A stretch of DNA of 64,000 nt from Enteractinococcus fodinae (GCF_031458395.1 NZ_JAVDYJ010000001.1:372001-436000); one strand, 5' to 3'; counted from the first letter of the stretch, positions 5,556-39,717 are shown. Numbers and translations are program-made. Notes: generated by a model not told the origin, from the sequence alone.

Positions 5556-5632
5556 CTTCCTCTACTTTTCACACTTTGACGCGTAGCTTCGCTGCGCCCA
5601 AAAACCTGAGCAAACCCCTGAAAGGAATCCTC

Positions 5633-6925
5633 ATGGATACCACTATTTTCGAGACCACCGAATCCGAAGTACGCAGCTACTGCCGCAGCTGGCCCACCGT
5701 ATTCTCCCAAGCCTCCGGTTCGATCCTGACCGATGAACAAGGCCGCGAATATATCGACTTCTTCGCCGGTGCTGGCGCCCTGAACTACGGGCACAACAAC
5801 CCAGAACTACGCACCGAACTGCTGGAATACCTCAGCTCGGATGCCTTGGTCCACTCGATGGATAAGATGACCCCGGCCAAGCGGGAATTCCTGCAGACCT
5901 TCAAAGACATCATCCTGGAACCACGTGGACTGGACTACAAAGTCATGTTCCCCGGACCCACGGGCACCAACACGGTCGAAGCCGCACTAAAACTGGCCCG
6001 CAAGGTCACCGGTCGTCAGCACATCCTGTCATTCACCAACGCGTTCCACGGCATGACCCTGGGTTCGCTGTCGGTCACCGGTAACTCCATGAAGCGCAAG
6101 GGTGCCGGCATGACCCTGACCAACAGCTCCAAGATCCCATACGACGACTACCTCGATGGTGAAACCCCAGACTTCCTGTGGCTCAAGCGCGTCCTAGAAG
6201 ACTCCGGCTCCGGTGTCGATAAACCAGCCGCGATCATCGTCGAAACCGTCCAGGGTGAAGGTGGACTCAACGCCGCACGCCACGAATGGCTACGCGGCCT
6301 GCGCGAGCTCACCAAGGAACACGATATTCTGCTGATCGTTGACGATGTCCAGGCCGGCTGCGGTCGGACCGGTTCGTTCTTCAGCTTCGAAGAAGCCGGC
6401 ATCACCCCGGATATCGTCTGCCTGTCCAAATCGATCTCCGGTTACGGCCTACCAATGGCGCTGACCCTGTTCAGCCCAGAACTCGATGTGTGGGCACCGG
6501 GCGAGCACAACGGTACCTTCCGTGGCCACAACCCAGCCTTTGTCACCGCAACTGCCGCACTGCGCCGCTACTGGGCCGATGACTCCTTCCAGAACGGTCA
6601 CCTGGTCAAAGTCATTGAAATGGTCCAAGATGCGCTGACCAAGATCGCCATCGAAGTTGAAGGTACCTCCGTCAAAGGCCGCGGCCTGCTGACCGGACTG
6701 CGCTTCAGCGACACCGACGTTGCCGGCAAGATTTCGGCCAAGGCCTTCGAAAAGGGTCTGCTGATGGAAACCTCCGGCCCAGAAGATGAAGTCATCAAGC
6801 TGATGCCAGCACTGAACATCGACCTGGTTGTCCTGGAACGCGGCCTGAATATCCTGGCCGACTGCGTCAGCGAGGTCACCGGACAAGAGATCACCCTGGT
6901 ACTGGGCGACACCGCCAAGGCCTAA
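5633..6925 (+). CDS. ectB: L-2,4-diaminobutyrate aminotransferase (2-oxoglutarate-linked)
   Basis: EctB transaminates L-aspartate-beta-semialdehyde with glutamate to give 2,4-diaminobutyrate, the first step of ectoine synthesis. The protein is about 430 residues, a class III PLP aminotransferase of normal length. Visible landmarks are [33 protein letters not shown], the [15 protein letters not shown] segment, the PLP-contacting [11 protein letters not shown], and the Schiff-base lysine in [21 protein letters not shown] lies 6 bases before the ATG at 5633; an in-frame codon at 5576 lacks a site. It lies 77 bases after ectA and 17 before ectC. Confidence 0.96.
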
Positions 6926-14119: not shown

Positions 14120-15390
14120 GGCACGCTCACTTCCAGTGCTGTTGGACCGCCGGCGGGACTGTCGACGGTGATGGTGCCGCCGGCTGCAACCGTACGATTG
14201 GTGATTCCATCTAGTCCGCCGCCGGGCAGGACTTTGGCGCCACCGGTGCCGTTGTCTTCGACTCGAGCCCACATGTAGGCCCGACCGCTGTCATCTTCGC
14301 GCATCCGCACAGTGACGCGGGCTTCGGAAGCTCGGGAATGTTTGGCCGCATTGGTCAGGCCTTCGGCGATGGCGAAGTACACGGCGGCTTCAGCTGCGCG
14401 ACCGCATCGGTGGGGGAGACGCACATCCAAGTTCACCGGAATATGCGACCGGCCCGCCACCGCTGACAGGGCGGCATCCAAACCACGGTCGTCCAGCACC
14501 GAGGCATAAATACCTCGGGTCAGTTGCCGCAGCTCAGTGATAGCCGCCTTGGTCGAGGTATGTGCTTCGTCGACGAGTTCCTTGGCGTGGGCAGGATTGT
14601 TGTCAATCTCTTGTTTGGCCAGCCCCAACGTCATGCCCACCGAGACGAGTCGGGGTTGGACACCGTCGTGCAGGTCGCGTTCGATACGAGTGCGTTCGAC
14701 TTCAGCCGCTCGCATGGCACCTTCACGTTGCACGGTGGTGGTACGAACCTGTTCGGTCAGTTTCGATTCACGGGCGGTCGCACCGATGATTGCGGTGGCA
14801 AGGGTGCGGTGTAAGAACAGCACCCCGACGACCACGCCGGCACACAACAGCGCGAGAAGTATCAGCCAGGGCGCGTAGCTAGCCTGGATCTCGATCCCGA
14901 AGGCCGTAGTCACGGTCTCGGCCTCGGTCAGTGGTGCGAACGCGCTGATGAGTAGTCGCACCATGGCCTGAATCGCGGCCATCATGAGTGAACCCAGTAG
15001 ACAGGCGAGTAAGAAGTTACCAAGGGCTGCCCACATGCGTCCGTGTGCGATGTTTCGTCCTAGTGATTTGAGGTATCCGACGAAGCCGCGTTGTGGATGC
15101 GAGCGCCAGGTCAGTCGCTGGGCCGGGATGTCATAGAGGCTTGCGACGCGTTCGATTTCGAACCAGGCGATCCCAAAGAGTGCGTAGAACACCCCGAGCA
15201 GAACGATCAAGCCCAGGCCGAGCACGATGATCAGCCCGGCTCCTAACCCGATGGCTCCGAATAATAAGCCGATGATGGCCCAACCGATCGTACCGAGGAC
15301 GGCTAGGTGCAGCAGTGTCATACCCAGCCGGAGGGGTGGGCGAGCGGGCTTTGTTTCGGCTACCCGCTGGGTTTGTGTTGTTGAACTCAT
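14107..15390 (-). CDS. Sensor histidine kinase (HisKA_3, LuxR-pair type)
   Basis: 427 residues. About six hydrophobic segments lie in the first 250 residues: a pair at ~25-72, and further ones at ~120-150 and ~172-195. The dimerisation box ERTRIERDLHDGVQPRLVSVG carries the phospho-His (~residue 266). The ATPase has EGLTNAAKHSRASE (N box) and VEDNGTGG / GGGLDGITNR. Many small membrane segments and no large external domain suggest intramembrane sensing. TACTGT ends 6 bases before the ATG with no ribosome site, so translation is probably leaderless. Confidence 0.92.
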   Translation of the reverse strand: MSSTTQTQRVAETKPARPPLRLGMTLLHLAVLGTIGWAIIGLLFGAIGLGAGLIIVLGLGLIVLLGVFYALFGIAWFEIERVASLYDIPAQRLTWRSHPQRGFVGYLKSLGRNIAHGRMWAALGNFLLACLLGSLMMAAIQAMVRLLISAFAPLTEAETVTTAFGIEIQASYAPWLILLALLCAGVVVGVLFLHRTLATAIIGATARESKLTEQVRTTTVQREGAMRAAEVERTRIERDLHDGVQPRLVSVGMTLGLAKQEIDNNPAHAKELVDEAHTSTKAAITELRQLTRGIYASVLDDRGLDAALSAVAGRSHIPVNLDVRLPHRCGRAAEAAVYFAIAEGLTNAAKHSRASEARVTVRMREDDSGRAYMWARVEDNGTGGAKVLPGGGLDGITNRTVAAGGTITVDSPAGGPTALEVSVPCAS

Positions 15391-31644: not shown

Positions 31645-31946
31645 GGCAAACCTCTCGGTAAAACGGAATATCGGAACGTGCTGGATTCAGGGCAGCCCGT
31701 TCGTGTCGTCACCGGTGTATGTCGTGATCATACGAACCTGGTTTCAGTATAAGAACGGGCAGCGCATTAAGCATGCCTTGGCGTGCGCAGCTCCTCGCTC
31801 CGGTGCCGCGCTCTCACCTTACGAGCGCATGATGGGGCCGAAGTTGAGCGAAAGACCAGTTCAGATCTGTACCGAAGTACAATGCCGAACTGCACCACCC
31901 TCCGTAATGTCAGAAATGATAAAACTCGAGACCTGGGGGAGGGGAC
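31645..31946. promoter_or_regulatory. Divergent region between the M20 gene and the ABC/M16 operon
   Basis: 302 gene-free bases. A perfect dyad TGTAC-CGAA-GTACA lies at 31868-31881, about 65 bases before the ABC gene. TAATGT at 31905-31910 is a possible -10 box for it. Nothing else stands out. Confidence 0.35.
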
Positions 31947-32927
31947 ATGCTTGGTCTAGAACTGCACGATATCGGCCGCAGTTTCGGAGACCGCCAGGTC
32001 CTCCACAGCGTCGACCTAGCTGTGGCCCCCGGCGAGATCGTAGGCATCATCGGTGGCAACGGCGCCGGGAAAACGACCACCATGCGCCTCATTCTGGGGC
32101 TGATCGAAGCCTCGGAAGGTACCATCACCTGGGACGGTGAACCGATCACCGCGCGAGACCGTCGAGCCATCGGCTATATGCCAGATGAGCGCGGACTTTA
32201 CCCACAGATGTCCGTCGTCGAACAACTGGTGCATTTCGCGCTGCTCGAAGGTGAAACGATCACCCAAGCCCGGCGCACCGTCTCCGAGCTCATCGACACC
32301 CTAGGACTGACCAGCCGTGAACGCTCCCGAGTCCAAGACCTCTCGCTGGGTGATCAACAGCGCGTCCAACTAGCAGTCGCCCTGGTCGGCCACCCCTCGC
32401 TGTTGGTCTTAGACGAACCGTTTGCCGGCCTGGACCCATTGGCCGTAGAAACCCTGGCGGCACTGATTCGACAACAAGCCGAAAGCGATGTCGGCGTCCT
32501 GTTTTCTTCCCAGCAACTCGAATTCGTCGAACGGTTGTGCGACCGGGTCTGTGTCTTAGACAAGGGCCGGATCGCTGCGAGCGGCCGGGTCACTGAGCTC
32601 CAAGCCGACTCGTACTCGCGCTGGGCCCTAAGTTTTAGCGAAGACCTCCCGGACCTGCTCATCGCGGAACTTTCGATCATCCCCGGGCTGATTCCAACCG
32701 CGGTGGAAGACGACCCGAAATCGGTCATGATCACGCTGTCGGGTCGAAACCGAGAAATCCCGGAAGAGGTCCTGCACGTAGCCCTCCGTCATGGTGGGCT
32801 CAGAAGTATTCGGTGCATCCAACGCTCGCTGGCCGAAATACTTGCTGACCGGCTGAAAACCGGTCCGGTGCGGAAAGCATCGACCGTCATCGATACCGGG
32901 CTCAAAGTCTCAGGTGCAATATCATGA
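31947..32927 (+). CDS. ABC transporter ATP-binding protein (NatA-like)
   Basis: 326 residues. The ATPase domain (~1-220) has Walker A GGNGAGKTTT, signature LSLGDQQRVQLAVAL (with LSLGD in place of LSGGQ), Walker B LLVLDEPFAGLDP, and a switch motif in which the usual His is Gln (FSSQQLEFVERL). The C-terminal ~100 residues (DUF4162-like) are typical of NatA/drug or peptide exporter ATPases. GGGGGAGGGG lies before the ATG. It overlaps the permease gene by 4 bases and begins a four-gene operon with two M16-like proteins. Confidence 0.9.
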   Translation: MLGLELHDIGRSFGDRQVLHSVDLAVAPGEIVGIIGGNGAGKTTTMRLILGLIEASEGTITWDGEPITARDRRAIGYMPDERGLYPQMSVVEQLVHFALLEGETITQARRTVSELIDTLGLTSRERSRVQDLSLGDQQRVQLAVALVGHPSLLVLDEPFAGLDPLAVETLAALIRQQAESDVGVLFSSQQLEFVERLCDRVCVLDKGRIAASGRVTELQADSYSRWALSFSEDLPDLLIAELSIIPGLIPTAVEDDPKSVMITLSGRNREIPEEVLHVALRHGGLRSIRCIQRSLAEILADRLKTGPVRKASTVIDTGLKVSGAIS

Positions 32928-33832
32928 CACCGACTGTCACTCGTATTGTTAGACGCTCCGCCACTGCGCCCACCGACTTCGACGCGGTGCGAACCGTGAT
33001 CCGACGGGAACTGGTGACGCGGTTTGTGAATCGCAGCATTGTTGTTTCGACCCTTATGCTGGGTGCACTTGCCGGTCTTGGCGCCGGGGTAGGCGGTTGG
33101 TTTCTGGTGGACCGCTTCGGAAGCACCGGCACGCTGGCCTTAGACACTCAGTTCCTCGTTGCCACCGCCATGATTAGCGCACTGCTGGCAGCCCTGATCT
33201 ACTCGTCCCAGAGTCTGGCCTCGGGAGTCGTCGAAGAAAAGTCATCCCGGCTTGTCGAGATCCTGTTGACCAAGATCGGTGTGACACCCCTGCTGGCCGG
33301 CAAACTCATCGGTGTCGGACTGGTCACCCTGGGCCAGTTGTTGGTGATCGGTGGGGCGGCGCTGACCAGCTTTACCGTCGTGGGTGGCTGGAGTGTTTTG
33401 GATATTGAACTTGGGGCCAACTTGTTGTGGTTCCTGGTTTGGTTCCTGCTGGGCTTTTGCAGCTTCGCGACGCTGAGCACCCTGCTGGCCTCCATGGTGT
33501 CCAGGCATGCAGACCTGGGCACCGCATTAACACCCCTGGTGGTCAGTCAACTGGTGCTGTGGGTTGTGGCGCTGTATTTGGTGCCACAGTATTTGGCGAG
33601 CACCTGGATCCAGGTGCTGTCCTTTGTGCCCCTGTTGTCTTCCTACCTGATGCCCATGCGGTTCGCCCTCGACGGGGTGCACACCGTGGAAATGGTGATC
33701 GCAGCGCTGATTGCTGCCGTCACGGTGCCGCTGCTCTTCCGCTTTACCACCACCATCTATCGCAAGAACGCGCTGCGAACCGGATCGCTGGTCGCCATGC
33801 GCGAGCCCAGCACTGCAGACGAAACCGCCTAA
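32924..33832 (+). CDS. ABC-2 type transporter permease (NatB-like)
   Basis: 302 residues. One membrane segment near residues 40-62 and five more from ~75 on. The segment SLASGVVEEKSSRLVEILLTKI is the NatB/ABC-2 signature after the second membrane helix, followed by PLLAGKLIGVGLVTLGQLL. It pairs with the overlapping ATPase. The substrate is unknown; the M16-like genes downstream and a small peptide gene nearby point to a peptide. Confidence 0.88.
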   Translation: MTPTVTRIVRRSATAPTDFDAVRTVIRRELVTRFVNRSIVVSTLMLGALAGLGAGVGGWFLVDRFGSTGTLALDTQFLVATAMISALLAALIYSSQSLASGVVEEKSSRLVEILLTKIGVTPLLAGKLIGVGLVTLGQLLVIGGAALTSFTVVGGWSVLDIELGANLLWFLVWFLLGFCSFATLSTLLASMVSRHADLGTALTPLVVSQLVLWVVALYLVPQYLASTWIQVLSFVPLLSSYLMPMRFALDGVHTVEMVIAALIAAVTVPLLFRFTTTIYRKNALRTGSLVAMREPSTADETA

Positions 33833-33883
33833 CCGACAGACCCCGCACAATCCGTTACCCTTTGATCCAGAAATGAGGTCGTG

Positions 33884-35146
33884 ATGCCCGCATCAGTCTC
33901 TCTGACCGGCCACGATATTCGTGGCTTGCACGCCGCTTCGACAACGTTGTCCAATGGCGCTCGCGTCTTGGCGATTCACGCTCCGCAGGCAAAAACCAGC
34001 ACCGTAGCGTTATCGCTGCGCGCTGGCATGCGTGATGAACGCCGAACAGAGCACAACGGCATCGTGCGCCTGATCGAACACATGGTGTACCAGGACAGCC
34101 AGACTATCCAGGGGCTGACACGGCAAGGCGACGTGGCTCGGGCGGGCTCCGTACTGGGTGGCAACACGCATATGGATTACACCGAATTTTTTGAAACCGG
34201 CTCGACACCAGATCTCGGGACCGTCGCTGCACGACTCGTTGACCAGGTGTTCTTCCCGGCATTTCGTGCCGAGCAACTTGCACAACAAATCGAAGCGGTT
34301 GCCATCGAACGACGTCAACGACTGGCTGCAGCACCGGGCAATGTTTTGCTGTGGCCGCATCTGACGGAGGCGTATTGGTATGATCACGCCAACGGTCATG
34401 ACGGTAGTGGCGACATCGACCTGACCGACCGGGTCACGCCCGAGCTGCTGGCCTCAATGCATCGCCAGCTGTATCACCCGGCGGGTGCGGTCATGGTCGC
34501 ACTGTCTCCGTTGCCGGCACCAGAAGCCCTCCACCAGCTGTCCGAAGCGTTCAGCAGCATTGCCCCGAGCGATGGACCATCCTCGCCCGCACCGGTGGGC
34601 CTGCCCATTACCCAGCACCTGGACGCAGGGCCCCTCGGTACCGGGTCTGCCAGCCGATGCTTGGCGGCTACACGTGCGGCCACGACGCGCGCCGTGACCC
34701 CACAGGTGTTGGGGGATCTCTTGGTTGCCGAAGCACTGGGGACCCTCGAAGGTCTGGATGCGAGTGCGGGAGTGTTCGGTCTCGGTGAGAGAACCCACGA
34801 TGACCTCTTTGTTCTCATTGATGACACGCCTTGTGCCGTGGACCCGGTAGATCGCATCCGGGCAGTCACGACGGCCAAGGACAGTCTGGTGCGTCATGCG
34901 ATCTGCCGGGCTGTGCACCGTGCTGAGCAACTGGTCGTGGATGATGCGCGCTTGGCTCGCACCGTCGCGCGCGATGTGCTGTTGCGTGATATTCCGGAGC
35001 ACAGCGCGCAGCTGGTGAGCGCCCTGGTTGAGCTCCTTGATCGTCCCGCCCTGGCCCGACATCTAATGGCGGAGGCGAGTCAACGCCTAACCAGCCAAGC
35101 ATTTGCTTCCATGACGGTCCGATATGAACCGGAAGGTGCTCGATGA
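33884..35146 (+). CDS. M16-family metallopeptidase-like protein with a degenerate zinc motif
   Basis: About 420 residues. The N-terminal half follows the M16 pattern: TTLSNGARVLAIHAPQAKTSTVALSLRAGMRDE, then GIVRLIEHMVYQD where peptidases have HxxEHM. The first His is Arg (RLIEH), so one zinc ligand is missing. The downstream GSVLGGNTHMDYTEF matches the A-x-x-x-G-G-x-x-N-A-x-T-x-x-D-x-T segment. An active zinc site is therefore doubtful; M16 pairs often include one inactive partner. GAGG lies 5 bases before the ATG at 33884. Its stop overlaps the start of the next gene (ATGA). Confidence 0.75.
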   Translation: MPASVSLTGHDIRGLHAASTTLSNGARVLAIHAPQAKTSTVALSLRAGMRDERRTEHNGIVRLIEHMVYQDSQTIQGLTRQGDVARAGSVLGGNTHMDYTEFFETGSTPDLGTVAARLVDQVFFPAFRAEQLAQQIEAVAIERRQRLAAAPGNVLLWPHLTEAYWYDHANGHDGSGDIDLTDRVTPELLASMHRQLYHPAGAVMVALSPLPAPEALHQLSEAFSSIAPSDGPSSPAPVGLPITQHLDAGPLGTGSASRCLAATRAATTRAVTPQVLGDLLVAEALGTLEGLDASAGVFGLGERTHDDLFVLIDDTPCAVDPVDRIRAVTTAKDSLVRHAICRAVHRAEQLVVDDARLARTVARDVLLRDIPEHSAQLVSALVELLDRPALARHLMAEASQRLTSQAFASMTVRYEPEGAR

Positions 35147-36081
35147 CAAGATCAATGCCACGACCTATTCGCACCGTGAGCGTCGTCGACACGCGCTCTG
35201 TGTTTACGACGATTGGGATCGCCTGGCGGACCACCCAGCCCACGGGTCAGCACCAGCCGAGCAGATCCCTGCGTCGGGCCCTGGAACACGGTGAACTCTC
35301 CCCGGCGGCAGCACGCCCGGTGCATAGCCAATGGCGCTCCGGTGACGGCGCGGAATCTGTGGTGGTGTCCCTACCCGAGGACAACGTGCTCGAATGGGTT
35401 CGGCATATCGAAGGCCTGTGGCTCGCGTTTCCAGTGGTCCACCCGGTGATCGCGATTGCGGGTTCCGAAGACATTGTCCAACAGCTCCACCAGGCGGTGG
35501 GGACACCAATCCCTTCCGCTGTGCCGTCCGCGACGATCCCCTGTGCGATGCGCCAAACACAACAACAGGGTTTTACTCATACTGCTCTGCGTGGGCCAGA
35601 CGCGTCGCATCAGGTTGGGCATGCGGCCACCTTAGTAGCTTTGAGCGCACTGCATGAGGGGCCAGCGCTGAGTTTACAAACCGCGTTGCAGCGCAGCGGG
35701 AATTACTCCAGGATCGACATCAGGCGCACCCTTGAGGCGGCCACTCCCGCCATTCAATGGGCTGTCACTTCGGAAGCGAAGCGCAGCATCGAGACGCTTG
35801 AAACCGTGGCGGGTCTCGCTGATGAGCTGGCACATATCACGAGCGCCGACCCCACCGAAGCCATCGCCTACGCTCAAGCCAATCTCGTTCGCGCCTGGAA
35901 TGCGCCGACCAGTCTGGTGCAGGCGATGGCACAATACGAAGTCATGGGATGGGGTGGGCAGCTGATTGCCAACCCCGACCGATCTTTCGATGGCGTCGAC
36001 GATTCCTTACCGGACGCATTTGCTGGACTGCTGCTGCCGTTGACCAACGTGGTGGATAGTCGACGGTCCGTGCTCGTCTAG
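35143..36081 (+). CDS. Second M16-like partner protein
   Basis: 312 residues, translationally coupled to the M16-like gene (4-base overlap). Sequence similarity to M16 is weak and I see no HxxEH. The later part (ALHEGPALSLQTALQRSGNYSRIDIRRTLEAATPAIQWAV, LANLVRAWN-type helices, and MAQYEVMGWGGQLI) resembles the C-terminal half of M16B subunits. Heterodimeric M16B pairs process leader peptides in some peptide natural-product clusters; this pair may do so or act as a non-catalytic chaperone. Its stop overlaps the convergent regulator gene. Confidence 0.6.
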   Translation: MTRSMPRPIRTVSVVDTRSVFTTIGIAWRTTQPTGQHQPSRSLRRALEHGELSPAAARPVHSQWRSGDGAESVVVSLPEDNVLEWVRHIEGLWLAFPVVHPVIAIAGSEDIVQQLHQAVGTPIPSAVPSATIPCAMRQTQQQGFTHTALRGPDASHQVGHAATLVALSALHEGPALSLQTALQRSGNYSRIDIRRTLEAATPAIQWAVTSEAKRSIETLETVAGLADELAHITSADPTEAIAYAQANLVRAWNAPTSLVQAMAQYEVMGWGGQLIANPDRSFDGVDDSLPDAFAGLLLPLTNVVDSRRSVLV

Positions 36082-36743
36082 GAACGCGGGGAGAGATCGA
36101 CCAGCCCGTGCTGTATGGCGGTGACTAAAATTTGGACGCGATCGCGCACGCCAAGCTTTTCCATAATCTTTACGAAGCGGGCTTTGATCGTGGATTCGGA
36201 GACAAAAAGTGCTTGTGCCATTTCGCGGTTGCTCATGCCCTGGGATAGCAGTTGGATGACTTCGAGTTCTTTATCGGTCAACCGATCTACGATCTCTGAG
36301 TCCGGGGTGACCTGGGCAGGTACGGATTCTTCCAGGCCCTTCACAACGTAACGCGTGACTTCAGGAGATAACACGGACTCGCCAGCAAGGACCGCATGAA
36401 TCGCAGCAACGATCTCGCGCGGTTTGGTGTCTTTGACCAGATATCCTGAGCCGCCGGCGCGCAGTAGGTCAACAACATAACGGTCCGTAGAGAACGTGGT
36501 CAGCCCAAGGATTTTGATCTCGGGATGTGCAGCATGGATCTGTGCTGTTGCCCCCACCCCGTCCAGGACCGGCATTTGCATATCCATCAGCACAATATCC
36601 GGTTGCAGGGCCGCTGCCTGACGCACTGCGACCTCACCATTATTGGCCTCACCGGCCACCTCGATCGAGGGATCAGTCGACAGGTAGTCCCGTAGAGTTT
36701 CCCGGATCATCGGTTCGTCATCGACGAGCAGCAGTCGAATCAT
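36078..36743 (-). CDS. LuxR/NarL-family response regulator
   Basis: 221 residues. Receiver: IRLLLVDDEPMIRETLRDYL, phospho-Asp in DIVLMDMQMPVLDG (~residue 54), Lys in YLVKDTKPREI. Output HTH: LTDKELEVIQLLSQGMSNREMAQALFVSESTIKARFVKIMEKLGVRDR. It overlaps its kinase gene by 26 bases, and its stop overlaps the stop of the convergent M16-like operon by 4 bases. A likely target is the dyad-rich promoter at 38068-38119 just beyond the kinase gene (inference from position). Confidence 0.93.
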   Translation of the reverse strand: MIRLLLVDDEPMIRETLRDYLSTDPSIEVAGEANNGEVAVRQAAALQPDIVLMDMQMPVLDGVGATAQIHAAHPEIKILGLTTFSTDRYVVDLLRAGGSGYLVKDTKPREIVAAIHAVLAGESVLSPEVTRYVVKGLEESVPAQVTPDSEIVDRLTDKELEVIQLLSQGMSNREMAQALFVSESTIKARFVKIMEKLGVRDRVQILVTAIQHGLVDLSPRS

Positions 36744-37977
36744 GTGAGGCTCCTTGCGATGTCTCAGATACTGGTTGTCTATCGAATGGGATCGTCATGG
36801 TCGTGGTCCAGACACCACGTTTTGATCCCGTGACCACTTCTCCGCCGAAGACTTCACAGCGGGCCCGCATCGCTTCCAGACCGGTTCTGGACGAAGAGAT
36901 AGGTCGCTCGGATGAAATTTCATTGGTGGAGCGCAGTGTCACCTGATCCTGGTCGATCAGCAACTGGATCTGCACGTCGGTGTCTGGCTTGCCGTGCTTC
37001 AAAATATTGGTGCCCAACTCTCGGACAGTTCGTCGCAGCGCCTGACGCAAACTTGCAGGTATGGAGGCCACCGGCCCTTCAATTTCTAATGCCGCACGAA
37101 ATCCGCCGCGCTCCACGGTGTCGACCACGTTGCGCATATCGTGGACTAAGCCAACGGACGTCGTGGTTTCCCCAGATAGTTTCGGATCATCGCTCTCGGT
37201 GTTCGTCGCATCGGCGTCACTCTGATCATCAGTCTGCGTCTTCAAGAGCATCACCAGACTGCGCAGGTCTTGCAGAGCTTGCGACGCAGAATCGCCGATC
37301 CCTTCAAGGATCTGGGCGGTCTTGACCGGGTCATCGGCCACGAACTCTGCCCGGCGTGCCTGCATCGCGATCACCGTGACGTCATGGGCCACGATGTCGT
37401 GTAGTTCATGCGCTAAGCGTTTGCGTTCTGAATTCCGAATTCTTGCCTGAGCTTCTTTGAGATCGCTGACTTCTTCGGCATATTTTAAGGATCGGCCATA
37501 CATCGCATTGGCCGCCAGCCCGGCACCGATGGCGCACACTGTCGAAATGCCTAAAAATATGAAACCTTGACCGATTTCAGGGTTGATGAGCCCGGAGAAG
37601 AGGACCAGGATCAATACTAGACCGGAAAAAACGCCGGCGGGGACCCTGGGAAGTGCGTAGGTGGCAAGTCCGACCGTGATGAGCATTGGGATCATGGATG
37701 CTGACAGCAACTCAGTGGGGATACCCATGCTCAGAAAGACTACAAACATGACGATCCAGGCGACGGCCCCCGAAACTACGCCGGCCAGCAGCGCAAGCAA
37801 CGGGATATAGGGCAGGATGAGTTCGACCCAGCCCTGCGGATCCGTGAGGATCACATCAGCGTTGAGTACATCGCTCACAACCAAAGCCACAAAGAGCGCG
37901 ACAAGCAGGGCCTTGCCAAGCCAGCCGCCCGGGACAGGGCGTACCTCGTCGATCCACCGTGCTTCTCGCTGTCGCAT
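36718..37977 (-). CDS. Sensor histidine kinase (HisKA_3) next to the small-peptide gene
   Basis: 419 residues. About six membrane segments fill residues ~20-170 with almost no external loop, then a coiled-coil stretch (YAEEVSDLKEAQARIRNSERKR). The dimerisation motif is RLAHELHDIVAHDVTVIAMQ with its phospho-His, and the ATPase has VRELGTNILKHG (N box) and TGLEAMRARCEVFGGEV. The membrane layout is like peptide-sensing or intramembrane-sensing kinases. TACCCT ends 6 bases before the ATG with no ribosome site (leaderless layout). It is divergent from the 63-residue peptide gene, with 175 bases between. Confidence 0.92.
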   Translation of the reverse strand: MRQREARWIDEVRPVPGGWLGKALLVALFVALVVSDVLNADVILTDPQGWVELILPYIPLLALLAGVVSGAVAWIVMFVVFLSMGIPTELLSASMIPMLITVGLATYALPRVPAGVFSGLVLILVLFSGLINPEIGQGFIFLGISTVCAIGAGLAANAMYGRSLKYAEEVSDLKEAQARIRNSERKRLAHELHDIVAHDVTVIAMQARRAEFVADDPVKTAQILEGIGDSASQALQDLRSLVMLLKTQTDDQSDADATNTESDDPKLSGETTTSVGLVHDMRNVVDTVERGGFRAALEIEGPVASIPASLRQALRRTVRELGTNILKHGKPDTDVQIQLLIDQDQVTLRSTNEISSERPISSSRTGLEAMRARCEVFGGEVVTGSKRGVWTTTMTIPFDRQPVSETSQGASHDSTAARR

Positions 37978-38067
37978 GAAACCAGGGTATCAGAGCATGA
38001 CAAAACGAGAATCTTCAACAAATACAGAGCAATGACACGTCCTGCTCCAAGAATTATCCTTTTGTAT

Positions 38068-38119
38068 ACCTGTTCTCACAGGTCCATAGGTCATTCTGGA
38101 ATTGTTGCTGTACGCAACA
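38068..38119. promoter_or_regulatory. Two perfect dyads in the kinase/peptide divergent promoter
   Basis: ACCTGT-TCTC-ACAGGT spans 38068-38083 and TGTTGC-TGTAC-GCAACA spans 38103-38119. A TTGTAT (38062-38067) could be a -35 box for the rightward peptide gene, which would place the first dyad in the promoter spacer and the second near the transcript start. These are the best candidates for the binding sites of the adjacent LuxR-type regulator. Confidence 0.5.
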
Positions 38120-38152
38120 GCACTCAAATCACACCACCGAAAGTAGAAGAAT

Positions 38153-38344
38153 ATGAAGAAACGCCTTGCCACCCTCGCAGTTGTTGCGGTAGCCAGTCTC
38201 GGCTTAGCGGCTCCGGGCAGCTCTGCTTCCGACATCGGCCCCACAGAACGACCATCTTCTCAGATGGTCGAAACCATGACTGACGTAGCGGGCACCTCCG
38301 CCTCACGCAGTTTTGCCTGCATCTTGATGCGCATGTGCAGATAA
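38153..38344 (+). CDS. Secreted small peptide precursor with a two-cysteine C-terminal tail
   Basis: 63 residues, family not recognised. MKKRLATL, then the hydrophobic AVVAVASLGLA and APGSSA-SD, look like a Sec signal peptide cut near residue 25. The middle (DIGPTERPSSQMVETMTDVAG) is polar. The end, SFACILMRMCR, has the only cysteines (56 and 62), so a 7-residue disulfide or thioether ring at the extreme C-terminus is possible. The ribosome site is weak (GAAAG / AGAAGA). It is divergent from a two-component kinase, close to an ABC transporter with M16-like partners, and followed by an MFS exporter. Candidate pheromone or antimicrobial; function is inference. Confidence 0.6.
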   Translation: MKKRLATLAVVAVASLGLAAPGSSASDIGPTERPSSQMVETMTDVAGTSASRSFACILMRMCR

Positions 38345-38482
38345 CCTGCTGCGCGCCTCACCGGTTGCCAACCACTCTAGGTTGTGAAGACCCGTGACGC
38401 GGGTGTAGATCAGCTGAACTCCCTACCGGTTTGCGGAGATCACTTCCTAGTAGGCAATGGCTAATTGAGTGCCGGTAGTCCA

Positions 38483-38547
38483 CACGTTGGTTGGTGCACT
38501 CCAACGTGACACTACGGTGCTGCCAAAATTGCCGGTAGGGTGACGTC
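38483..38547 (+). promoter_or_regulatory. Operator-like dyad and leaderless promoter of the MFS gene
   Basis: CACGTTGG-N10-CCAACGTG (38483-38508) is a perfect 8-bp dyad. It lies just before the expected -35 position of a promoter whose -10 is TAGGGT (38536-38541). The -10 ends 6 bases before the GTG start at 38548. A TetR- or MarR-type regulator could bind the dyad; no such gene is adjacent. Confidence 0.45.
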
Positions 38548-39717
38548 GTGACCTCTACAACTGCCGATACTGTTGTGCGGCGACCACCCGGTGCGATGGC
38601 ACTAGCCGCCTTCACCTCCAGTGTGGATCGCTTCGGCATCTCGCCGTTACTCGTGGTGATCGCCGTCGACTTTGGTGTGCCCCTAAGTGCCGCGGTGATG
38701 ACCGCCTCGGTGTATTTCTTGACTTACGGGCTCACCCAGCCGCTCTGGGGCATGCTGTCCGACCGGTTTGGTCGCCTACCGGTCATGCGGGTGGCACTTT
38801 CCGGTGCGATGCTGTTCGGACTAGCCTCAGCCTTTGCCCCCAACCTGGGCGTACTGACGGTCGCCAGAGCACTCACCGGAGGGTTTTTCGGCGCCATCAT
38901 CCCAGCCTCAATTACCTATGTTGGCGATACGACTTCGCAGGAGCACCGCCAATCAGCGTTATCCGACCTGATGGCCGCAGTGGCTGTGGGCACGGCCTCG
39001 GCCACAGCAGCAGCTGGCATCATCGGCCAAGTCCTGAACTGGCGGATTGTTTTCGCACTCGCCGCAGTGTTGGCACTGATCGCGTTGATCCCATTGCTGC
39101 GGATGGCAGAACCAGAGCGTGAACGTAACACCGGAGTGGTGGCCTCGCTGCGACTCTTCTTTGCAGAAAAGTGGTCCTGGGTCATCATTGTGCTCGCTTT
39201 TATCGAAGGTGCCCTCGTGCTGGGCATCCTGACGCTGCTTGCCCCGGCCTTGGAAGCCCAAGGGGTCGATACCAGCCTGGCCGGCCTAGCGGTCGCAGCA
39301 TACGGGGTAGCCACCCTGGTGTGCACTCGATTTGTTCGCCCGGTCACCGCCAGACTCTCAGCGTCCAGGGTCGTCGCGCTGGGCGGGATCTGCCTGGTGC
39401 TGGGCTTAGCCACGGTGGCAATCCAGCTGTCGATCGCCACCGTGGTGGTTGCCGCGGTCCTATTGGGTGGTGCCTGGGCGTTTATGCACACCGGACTGCA
39501 ATCCTGGGCCACTCAAGTGGTGCCAGCAGCCCGGGGGATCTCGGTGGCGTTCTTTGCCGGCGCCGTGTTTGCGGGCAGTGCCGTTAGCTCGGCCATTGCC
39601 GGAGCGCTCGCCGAAGCAGGATACTGGATGATCATTTTCGGCGCGAGCGCAGCGACAGCGGTGGTCCTAACCGTCGCCGCTGTCGCCGGATTGTCCCGGT
39701 ACTTGTCACACCGGTAA
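38548..39717 (+). CDS. MFS transporter, 12-segment DHA1-type
   Basis: 389 residues with 12 predicted membrane segments. Motif A appears as GMLSDRFGRLPVMRVALSGA. The N-terminus DRFGISPLLVVIAVDFGVPLSAAV and the later LTGGFFGAIIPASITYVGD fit DHA1 multidrug or metabolite exporters. It starts with GTG, 6 bases after TAGGGT, with no ribosome site (leaderless layout). It follows the small peptide gene by 203 bases in the same direction and may export or give resistance to the same peptide, but it has its own promoter. Confidence 0.88.
   Translation: MTSTTADTVVRRPPGAMALAAFTSSVDRFGISPLLVVIAVDFGVPLSAAVMTASVYFLTYGLTQPLWGMLSDRFGRLPVMRVALSGAMLFGLASAFAPNLGVLTVARALTGGFFGAIIPASITYVGDTTSQEHRQSALSDLMAAVAVGTASATAAAGIIGQVLNWRIVFALAAVLALIALIPLLRMAEPERERNTGVVASLRLFFAEKWSWVIIVLAFIEGALVLGILTLLAPALEAQGVDTSLAGLAVAAYGVATLVCTRFVRPVTARLSASRVVALGGICLVLGLATVAIQLSIATVVVAAVLLGGAWAFMHTGLQSWATQVVPAARGISVAFFAGAVFAGSAVSSAIAGALAEAGYWMIIFGASAATAVVLTVAAVAGLSRYLSHR

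What the first reader, a model, noticed from the sequence alone, without database searches (positions are those of the whole stretch)
31947..39717. Possible undescribed peptide system: ABC-2 transporter, M16-like pair, two-component pair, secreted two-Cys peptide, MFS exporter
The sequence shows four overlapping or closely spaced genes (ABC ATPase, permease, two M16-like proteins), a convergent LuxR two-component pair whose regulator stop overlaps the operon's stop, and, divergent from the kinase, a 63-residue peptide with a signal-like start and a SFACILMRMCR end, then an exporter. M16 pairs with ABC exporters occur in known peptide natural-product clusters (for example AlbE/AlbF of subtilosin, M16B pairs of class III lanthipeptides), but no modification enzyme is seen here. 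Inference: peptide production, sensing and resistance in one locus, as pheromone or bacteriocin.
Basis: partly seen in the sequence, partly recalled or inferred. Interest (0 to 1): 0.75.

Follow-up and report, generated by a model that had tools for sequence, protein, structure and literature searches.

The report
Gutted lanthipeptide cluster with signal peptide
This stretch is what remains of a gene cluster for a ring-containing antibiotic-like peptide (class Va lanthipeptide): the genes that made the peptide are gone, while a transporter, a two-part sensor and a small secreted peptide that is probably the sensor's signal remain, a pattern that recurs in related bacteria and points to which genes protect and which sense.

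Summary
Relatives in Arthrobacter, Glutamicibacter and Rothia carry the same ABC-ABC-M16-M16 <RR <HK genes with a class Va lanthipeptide cassette (LanK, HopA1/LanY, precursors, LanD, LanX) between permease and M16A. In the window that interval is 48 bp; the genome has no HopA1 or precursor gene. Its M16A alone of 14 has a broken zinc motif (RLIEH for HLxEH). Three Rothia species and one Arthrobacter are gutted too, with M16B scars, keeping ABC and TCS under purifying selection. The two-Cys peptide link is not accidental: peptides ending C-x4-6-C lie beside HK or ABC in six other lineages (about 1% expected per edge), with the ABC operon's operator, TGTAC-N4-GTACA, in their promoters (weak in the window, p=0.045). 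Best reading: immunity transporter plus peptide-pheromone/TCS circuit left after loss of production. Shown: homology, losses, linkage. Inferred: immunity, pheromone role. Arthrobacter lacks the peptide.

The parts
31868..31881 (+). Putative response-regulator operator TGTACCGAAGTACA (TGTAC-N4-GTACA) 80 bp before the ABC ATPase
   Evidence: Perfect inverted repeat; same site at -80 to -86 in Arthrobacter, Glutamicibacter PS and L123, one mismatch in Rothia; only two perfect sites in the genome
31947..32927 (+). ABC transporter ATPase; candidate immunity component
   Evidence: PF00005; 61-64% identical to the ATPase of class Va lanthipeptide clusters; kept in all gutted loci
32924..33832 (+). 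ABC-2 permease; candidate immunity component
   Evidence: PF12698; 66% identical to Glutamicibacter PS; kept in all gutted loci
33833..33880 (.). 48-bp junction where relatives carry LanK, HopA1, precursors, LanD and LanX
   Evidence: no deletion scar could be proven
33881..35146 (+). M16 peptidase-like protein A (leader peptidase of the lost cluster), zinc motif HxxEH changed to RLIEH
   Evidence: PF00675; HLxEH in all 13 other loci; motif position confirmed against solved M16 proteases
35143..36081 (+). M16-like protein B (partner without zinc motif)
   Evidence: 37-40% identical to the G140 homologue
36078..36743 (-). NarL/LuxR-type response regulator
   Evidence: PF00072 + PF00196; 75% identical to Glutamicibacter PS
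36718..37977 (-). Membrane histidine kinase (HisKA_3)
   Evidence: PF07730; sensor 17-33%, kinase 47-58% identical to relatives
38055..38068 (+). Weak operator-like site TATCCTTTTGTATA 98 bp before the peptide gene
   Evidence: Profile built from ABC-promoter sites only, p = 0.045; position agrees with -87 to -129 in relatives
38153..38344 (+). 63-aa secreted peptide ending CILMRMCR; candidate pheromone
   Evidence: Signal-like N-terminus; counterpart in Glutamicibacter PS aligns at z 4.7 and lies at the same distance from HK; two-Cys peptides in Rothia, G. uratoxydans and g23

Best explanation
The segment about 31668-38577 is a horizontally acquired class Va lanthipeptide locus that has lost its precursor peptides and modification enzymes. 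What remains is (1) an ABC-2 transporter that most likely removes the lanthipeptide from the membrane (immunity), (2) a leader-peptidase pair whose catalytic subunit has lost a zinc ligand, and (3) a regulatory circuit. In the circuit a small secreted peptide with a C-terminal pair of cysteines activates the membrane histidine kinase; the response regulator then binds TGTAC-N4-GTACA operators before the ABC operon and before the peptide gene, giving positive feedback. The strain would be a resistant non-producer that still makes and senses the signal. Shown by sequence: homology to class Va clusters, absence of cassette and precursors, recurrent loss with ABC+TCS kept, peptide linkage, shared operator. 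Inferred: horizontal acquisition, immunity role of the ABC pair, the peptide as ligand of the kinase, operator binding, ring chemistry. My estimates: class Va remnant 0.93; ABC = immunity 0.7; peptide belongs to the TCS regulon 0.85; peptide = pheromone 0.5-0.55.
For: 12 complete class Va loci share the ABC-ABC-...-M16A-M16B <RR <HK frame, with LanK (PF01636), HopA1 (PF17914), LanD (PF02441), LanX and precursors in the middle. The window lacks these but groups inside the complete clusters with bootstrap 100. The window's M16A is the only one of 14 with a broken zinc motif. Gutted Rothia and Arthrobacter loci carry M16B scars and keep ABC, TCS and a small membrane protein with dN/dS far below 1. 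Two-Cys peptides lie beside HK or ABC in 13 of 39 edges against about 1% expected. A profile made only from ABC-promoter operators finds sites in the peptide promoters. The window peptide is homologous to that of Glutamicibacter PS, its sister in the tree. Peptides and sensor domains are much more divergent than kinase domains and lanthipeptide cores.
Against: Arthrobacter loci and G878 have the TCS (and Arthrobacter the operator) but no linked two-Cys peptide. The operator before the window peptide is weak (p = 0.045). No deletion scar is seen in the window itself. Full-length M16 genes with unaccelerated branches are unexpected if they have had no function for long. The peptide pattern was widened after the first examples were seen. 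No experiment shows sensing or immunity.
Confidence: 0.55

Rival explanations
1. Eavesdropping: the kinase senses the lanthipeptide itself (as NisK senses nisin), and the small two-Cys peptide is an induced secreted immunity or decoy peptide. The gutted loci are resistance modules that respond to producers nearby.
For: Arthrobacter keeps TCS and operator without a linked peptide. Gutted loci keep TCS and ABC together. Product-sensing TCSs are well known for lantibiotics (own knowledge).
Against: Lanthipeptide cores are almost identical across genera, whereas sensor domains (17-37%) and peptides are very divergent, which suggests that the sensor follows the peptide.
Confidence: 0.27
2. The small two-Cys peptide is itself a bacteriocin (unmodified, disulfide-bonded) regulated together with the lanthipeptide; the ABC transporter is its immunity or exporter.
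Against: Very short and variable ends, 37 aa in all in g23. The ABC pair is conserved also in Arthrobacter without the peptide. The peptides carry a Sec-like signal, so they would not need the ABC pair for export.
Confidence: 0.1
3. The window shows the ancestral small unit (ABC + M16 + TCS + peptide) to which relatives added the lanthipeptide cassette.
For: No deletion scar in the window; G878, a long branch, also lacks the cassette.
Against: The window nests with a complete cluster at bootstrap 100. A leader-peptidase pair without a precursor is an unlikely ancestral unit. Other gutted loci carry clear M16B scars.
Confidence: 0.06

Closest known systems
Class Va lanthipeptide clusters (lexapeptide, cacaoidin, pristinin A3, rosins)
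   Same: M16 pair (RosP1/P2, LxmP1/P2) or one M16 protein, ABC-2 permease plus ATPase (Cao18/19, SprT2/T3), and in the relatives of the window LanK, LanY (HopA1), LanD, LanX and precursors (PMC12291118, PMC8068269, PMC7794033).
   Different: The window has no precursor or modification enzyme. The Micrococcaceae clusters add a convergent TCS, a two-Cys secreted peptide, a TGTAC-N4-GTACA operator and a tiny membrane protein.
Non-producers with uncoupled lantibiotic immunity transporters (LanFEG-type, CprABC)
   Same: Transporter and TCS kept without biosynthesis genes (PMC4239024).
   Different: Those are Firmicutes LanFEG systems; here it is the ABC-2 pair of class Va clusters, with a linked candidate pheromone and recurrent, datable deletions.
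Peptide-pheromone/TCS circuits that control bacteriocins (agr, blp, pln type; own knowledge)
   Same: Small secreted variable peptide, membrane kinase with diverged sensor, regulator, shared operator before signal gene and effector operon.
   Different: Sec-like or hydrophobic precursor with a C-terminal C-x4-6-C; no AgrB-like enzyme and no double-glycine leader seen; NarL-type regulator; actinobacterial.
   Same: Paired M16 proteins next to an ABC transporter.
   Different: The nearest homologues lie in class Va lanthipeptide clusters; no radical SAM or LanKC gene was seen in them.

Membership tests
Class Va lanthipeptide cluster (window locus) | LanY lyase with HopA1 domain (PF17914) | tested here: not met
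   Absent from the whole genome; present in all complete relatives tested
Class Va lanthipeptide cluster (window locus) | Precursor peptides | tested here: not met
   No match in the genome
Class Va lanthipeptide cluster (window locus) | M16 leader-peptidase pair and ABC-2 transporter, homologous to those of complete clusters | tested here: met
Class Va lanthipeptide cluster (relatives) | LanK PF01636, LanY PF17914, LanD PF02441, LanX, precursors with Ser/Thr and terminal Cys | tested here: met
   LanX assigned by position and blastp between relatives only
Active M16 peptidase | HxxEH zinc motif | tested here: not met
   RLIEH in the window, HLxEH in the 13 others
Peptide pheromone-TCS quorum-sensing system | Secreted peptide gene linked to the kinase and in the same regulon | tested here: met
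   operator weak in the window; not met in Arthrobacter
Peptide pheromone-TCS quorum-sensing system | Mature peptide binds and activates the kinase | not testable with these tools
   Needs a reporter assay with synthetic peptide
Lantibiotic immunity transporter | Confers resistance to the cognate lanthipeptide | not testable with these tools
   Only indirect: kept after loss of production in several lineages

The most novel reading that the evidence does not exclude
A family of secreted peptides with a C-terminal two-cysteine end acts as autoinducers for class Va lanthipeptide production in Micrococcaceae, each with its own diverged kinase. Strains that dropped the lanthipeptide genes keep signal, receptor and immunity pump, so they take part in or listen to the signalling while not producing.
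Probability: 0.42. Interest if true: 0.8.

Novelty: new variant of a known kind. Interest (0 to 1): 0.6.

Why it matters
No dedicated self-protection or signalling genes for class V lanthipeptides turned up in the descriptions I could read; the ABC pair has only been suggested for export or resistance in cacaoidin (PMC8068269). The recurrent gutted loci act as natural deletion experiments: they separate what is needed to make the compound from what is worth keeping without it, and they single out one ABC pair, in two lineages one tiny membrane protein, and one TCS circuit. If the two-Cys peptide is the inducer, adding the synthetic peptide could switch on silent class Va clusters in Glutamicibacter and Rothia and would reveal a peptide signalling family in actinobacteria.

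Tried and rejected
(1) LanX scar: the window reads PEMRS* just before M16A and LanX of G140 ends PEMR*, but the other LanX ends differ, so I do not count it as a scar. (2) Direct search for the 63-aa peptide in 99 related genomes gave only signal-peptide-like noise; the counterparts were found by position instead. (3) M16A search in relatives returned generic M16 proteases; plasmids likewise. (4) A class-wide sample searched with M16B found only the window itself. (5) Outside the family the permease has only distant ABC-2 homologues at 39-41%, without TCS, M16 or lanthipeptide genes near the four inspected. (6) Extra perfect operator sites in the own and Arthrobacter genomes are not next to two-Cys peptides. 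(7) The MFS exporter was removed from the system because of sister-species synteny. (9) Paper searches for quorum sensing or orphan immunity of class V lanthipeptides found nothing direct; the library lacks most subscription papers. (10) Structure prediction was not used: it would not have decided between pheromone and immunity.

Full report
What is there. M16B has no Pfam or NCBIfam hit of its own.

Extent of the unit. In sister species G007 and G006 the M20 peptidase, the MFS exporter and the SseB gene are directly adjacent. Alignment with G007 puts the inserted segment at about 31668-38577 of the window. The MFS exporter therefore belongs to the core genome, and the 63-aa peptide belongs to the inserted segment. 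None of 8 other genomes of the genus has M16A or this permease.

What the ABC/M16/TCS genes are. A search of 396 genomes of the order with M16B gave one relative, G140. Its locus has the same genes in the same order, but between permease and M16A it carries an APH-type kinase (PF01636), a HopA1 protein (PF17914), two small precursors, a flavoprotein (PF02441) and a further 292-aa protein. This is the published enzyme set of class Va lanthipeptides: LanK, LanY, LanD, LanX (PMC12291118). Rosin and lexapeptide clusters also have an M16 pair, and cacaoidin and pristinin clusters an ABC-2 transporter with an ATPase (PMC8068269, PMC12291118, PMC7794033). A scan of named genomes gave Glutamicibacter sp. 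PS, G. uratoxydans, two Arthrobacter and three Rothia genomes, and a permease search in 395 genomes of the family added five complete loci in genus g23. In all, 12 loci are complete and 3 are cut by contig ends.

Loss in the window. In the window the cassette interval is 48 bp. The genome has no HopA1 and no precursor. In a tree of ABCa, ABCp, RR and HK the window pairs with the complete cluster of Glutamicibacter PS with bootstrap 100, inside the complete clusters (midpoint rooting). M16A reads RLIEH where all 13 other loci read HLxEH, and the changed column aligns with the first zinc-binding His of solved M16 proteases. The M16 genes are otherwise full-length and their branches are about as long as those of Glutamicibacter PS, so the loss may be recent or the pair may have kept a non-catalytic role.

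The loss recurs. Three Rothia species (L118, L119, L132) have the ABC pair, a small membrane protein and the TCS, but lack everything from the start of LanK to the middle of M16B. All three share one exact junction (L068 5145|11841) and keep the 3' end of M16B. Arthrobacter G1076 (L120) lacks the same block by a different, complex deletion that leaves a 170-aa ORF with the last 137 residues of M16B. G878 has only ABC and TCS, but it is a long branch and could be ancestral. HopA1 is present in all seven complete genomes tested and absent from all six gutted ones; precursors likewise in the subset tested. Counting the window, Rothia and Arthrobacter there are at least three independent losses, each keeping ABC and TCS. 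In gutted Arthrobacter against its complete relatives dN/dS is 0.07-0.09 for ABCa, 0.03-0.08 for ABCp, 0.02-0.04 for RR and 0.04-0.07 for HK, as between complete relatives, and 0.25-0.37 for the M16B fragment. Known non-producers with uncoupled lantibiotic immunity transporters (PMC4239024) make an immunity role for the ABC pair the natural reading. It is an inference.

The small peptide. A direct sequence search for the 63-aa peptide finds nothing convincing. By position it has counterparts. In Glutamicibacter PS a peptide divergent from HK at the same distance ends YCFFNPGC and aligns with the window peptide at z 4.7 (4.6 for the mature part alone). In G. uratoxydans a 37-aa peptide at the same place ends FWCAQLGWWC. 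In Rothia a 60-aa peptide just upstream of HK on the same strand ends WLCKSGICD. In g23, 37-aa peptides divergent from the ABC operon end VCGTFPLFC, LCQYFGFSC and FCSNFGAMC. Thirteen of 39 cluster edges carry such an ORF, against about 0.8% of shuffled edges and 1.2-1.5% per 600 nt of other real sequence (one of its five control hits is the window peptide itself). Counting clades strictly and leaving out the window, 4 hits in 11 edges has p about 1.5e-5. Arthrobacter and G878 have none. The exact pattern was widened after the first examples, so these figures are somewhat optimistic.

Shared operator. The ABC operon is preceded by TGTAC-N4-GTACA in the window (31868-31881), Arthrobacter, Glutamicibacter PS and L123, with one mismatch in Rothia, mostly 80-86 bp before the start and sometimes in tandem. 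Further perfect copies in other g23 loci lie just inside the longest ABCa ORF, probably because its start is placed too early. A profile built only from these ABC sites finds sites 87-129 bp before the peptide genes: p < 0.001 in Glutamicibacter PS, G. uratoxydans, Rothia and L124, 0.005-0.008 in three g23 loci, 0.06 in L123, and 0.045 in the window. Perfect sites are rare: one or two positions in each of the four genomes searched. The peptide gene and the ABC/lanthipeptide operon therefore appear to belong to one regulon, and the adjacent TCS is the obvious regulator.

Mechanism. The most likely reading is that the secreted two-Cys peptide is the ligand of the histidine kinase and the regulator activates both its own signal and the ABC/lanthipeptide operon. 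The peptides and the sensor domains (17-37% identity between most lineages) are far more divergent than the kinase domains (40-64%) and the lanthipeptide cores, as expected for co-diverging signal and receptor. The main rival is that the kinase senses the lanthipeptide and the small peptide is an induced protective peptide; Arthrobacter, without a linked peptide, favours that rival. In either case the window strain reads as a resistant non-producer that keeps sensing and protection.

Verdict. Recurrent gutting is a known kind of event. The linked two-Cys peptide family with a shared operator appears undescribed in the papers I could search, and it is the part worth testing.

Noticed in passing
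L064:5314-5379 and 5580-5645; also L066, L067, L068, L069, L070, L072, L121-L124: Almost every complete cluster encodes two kinds of precursor, one ending ..SPLCxGIIVGATLGAGC and one ..[ST]PFCAGVxIGATLT[MVA]GC, conserved across genera: possibly a two-component class Va lanthipeptide.
   Followed up: partly
L064 (62 bp after the permease), L118 (67 bp after), L120 (60 bp after) and the other complete loci: A 37-48 aa membrane protein (..KKLLRNxALLLxGxxAAYxVTTFL) follows the permease in all complete loci with that region and in gutted Rothia and Arthrobacter loci, but not in the window or G878: a possible third immunity component.
   Followed up: partly
L118:7823-8005 (reversed locus): In gutted Rothia G973 the second cysteine of the peptide is replaced by tyrosine (..LCRTGIYD), as if the signal were decaying.
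   Followed up: no
L068:9083-9947 and about 14854-15003: In Rothia S13M the LanX gene is split into two ORFs and the two-Cys peptide is degenerate although the rest of the cluster is complete.
   Followed up: no
RR genes of L118, L119, L132 and L068: Synonymous divergence in RR (0.50-0.68 between some Rothia pairs) is many times that of the neighbouring ABC genes, pointing to a recombined patch.
   Followed up: no
window 31668-38577: The inserted segment has the same G+C content as its flanks (0.588 against 0.589 and 0.569), so composition gives no hint of foreign origin.
   Followed up: yes
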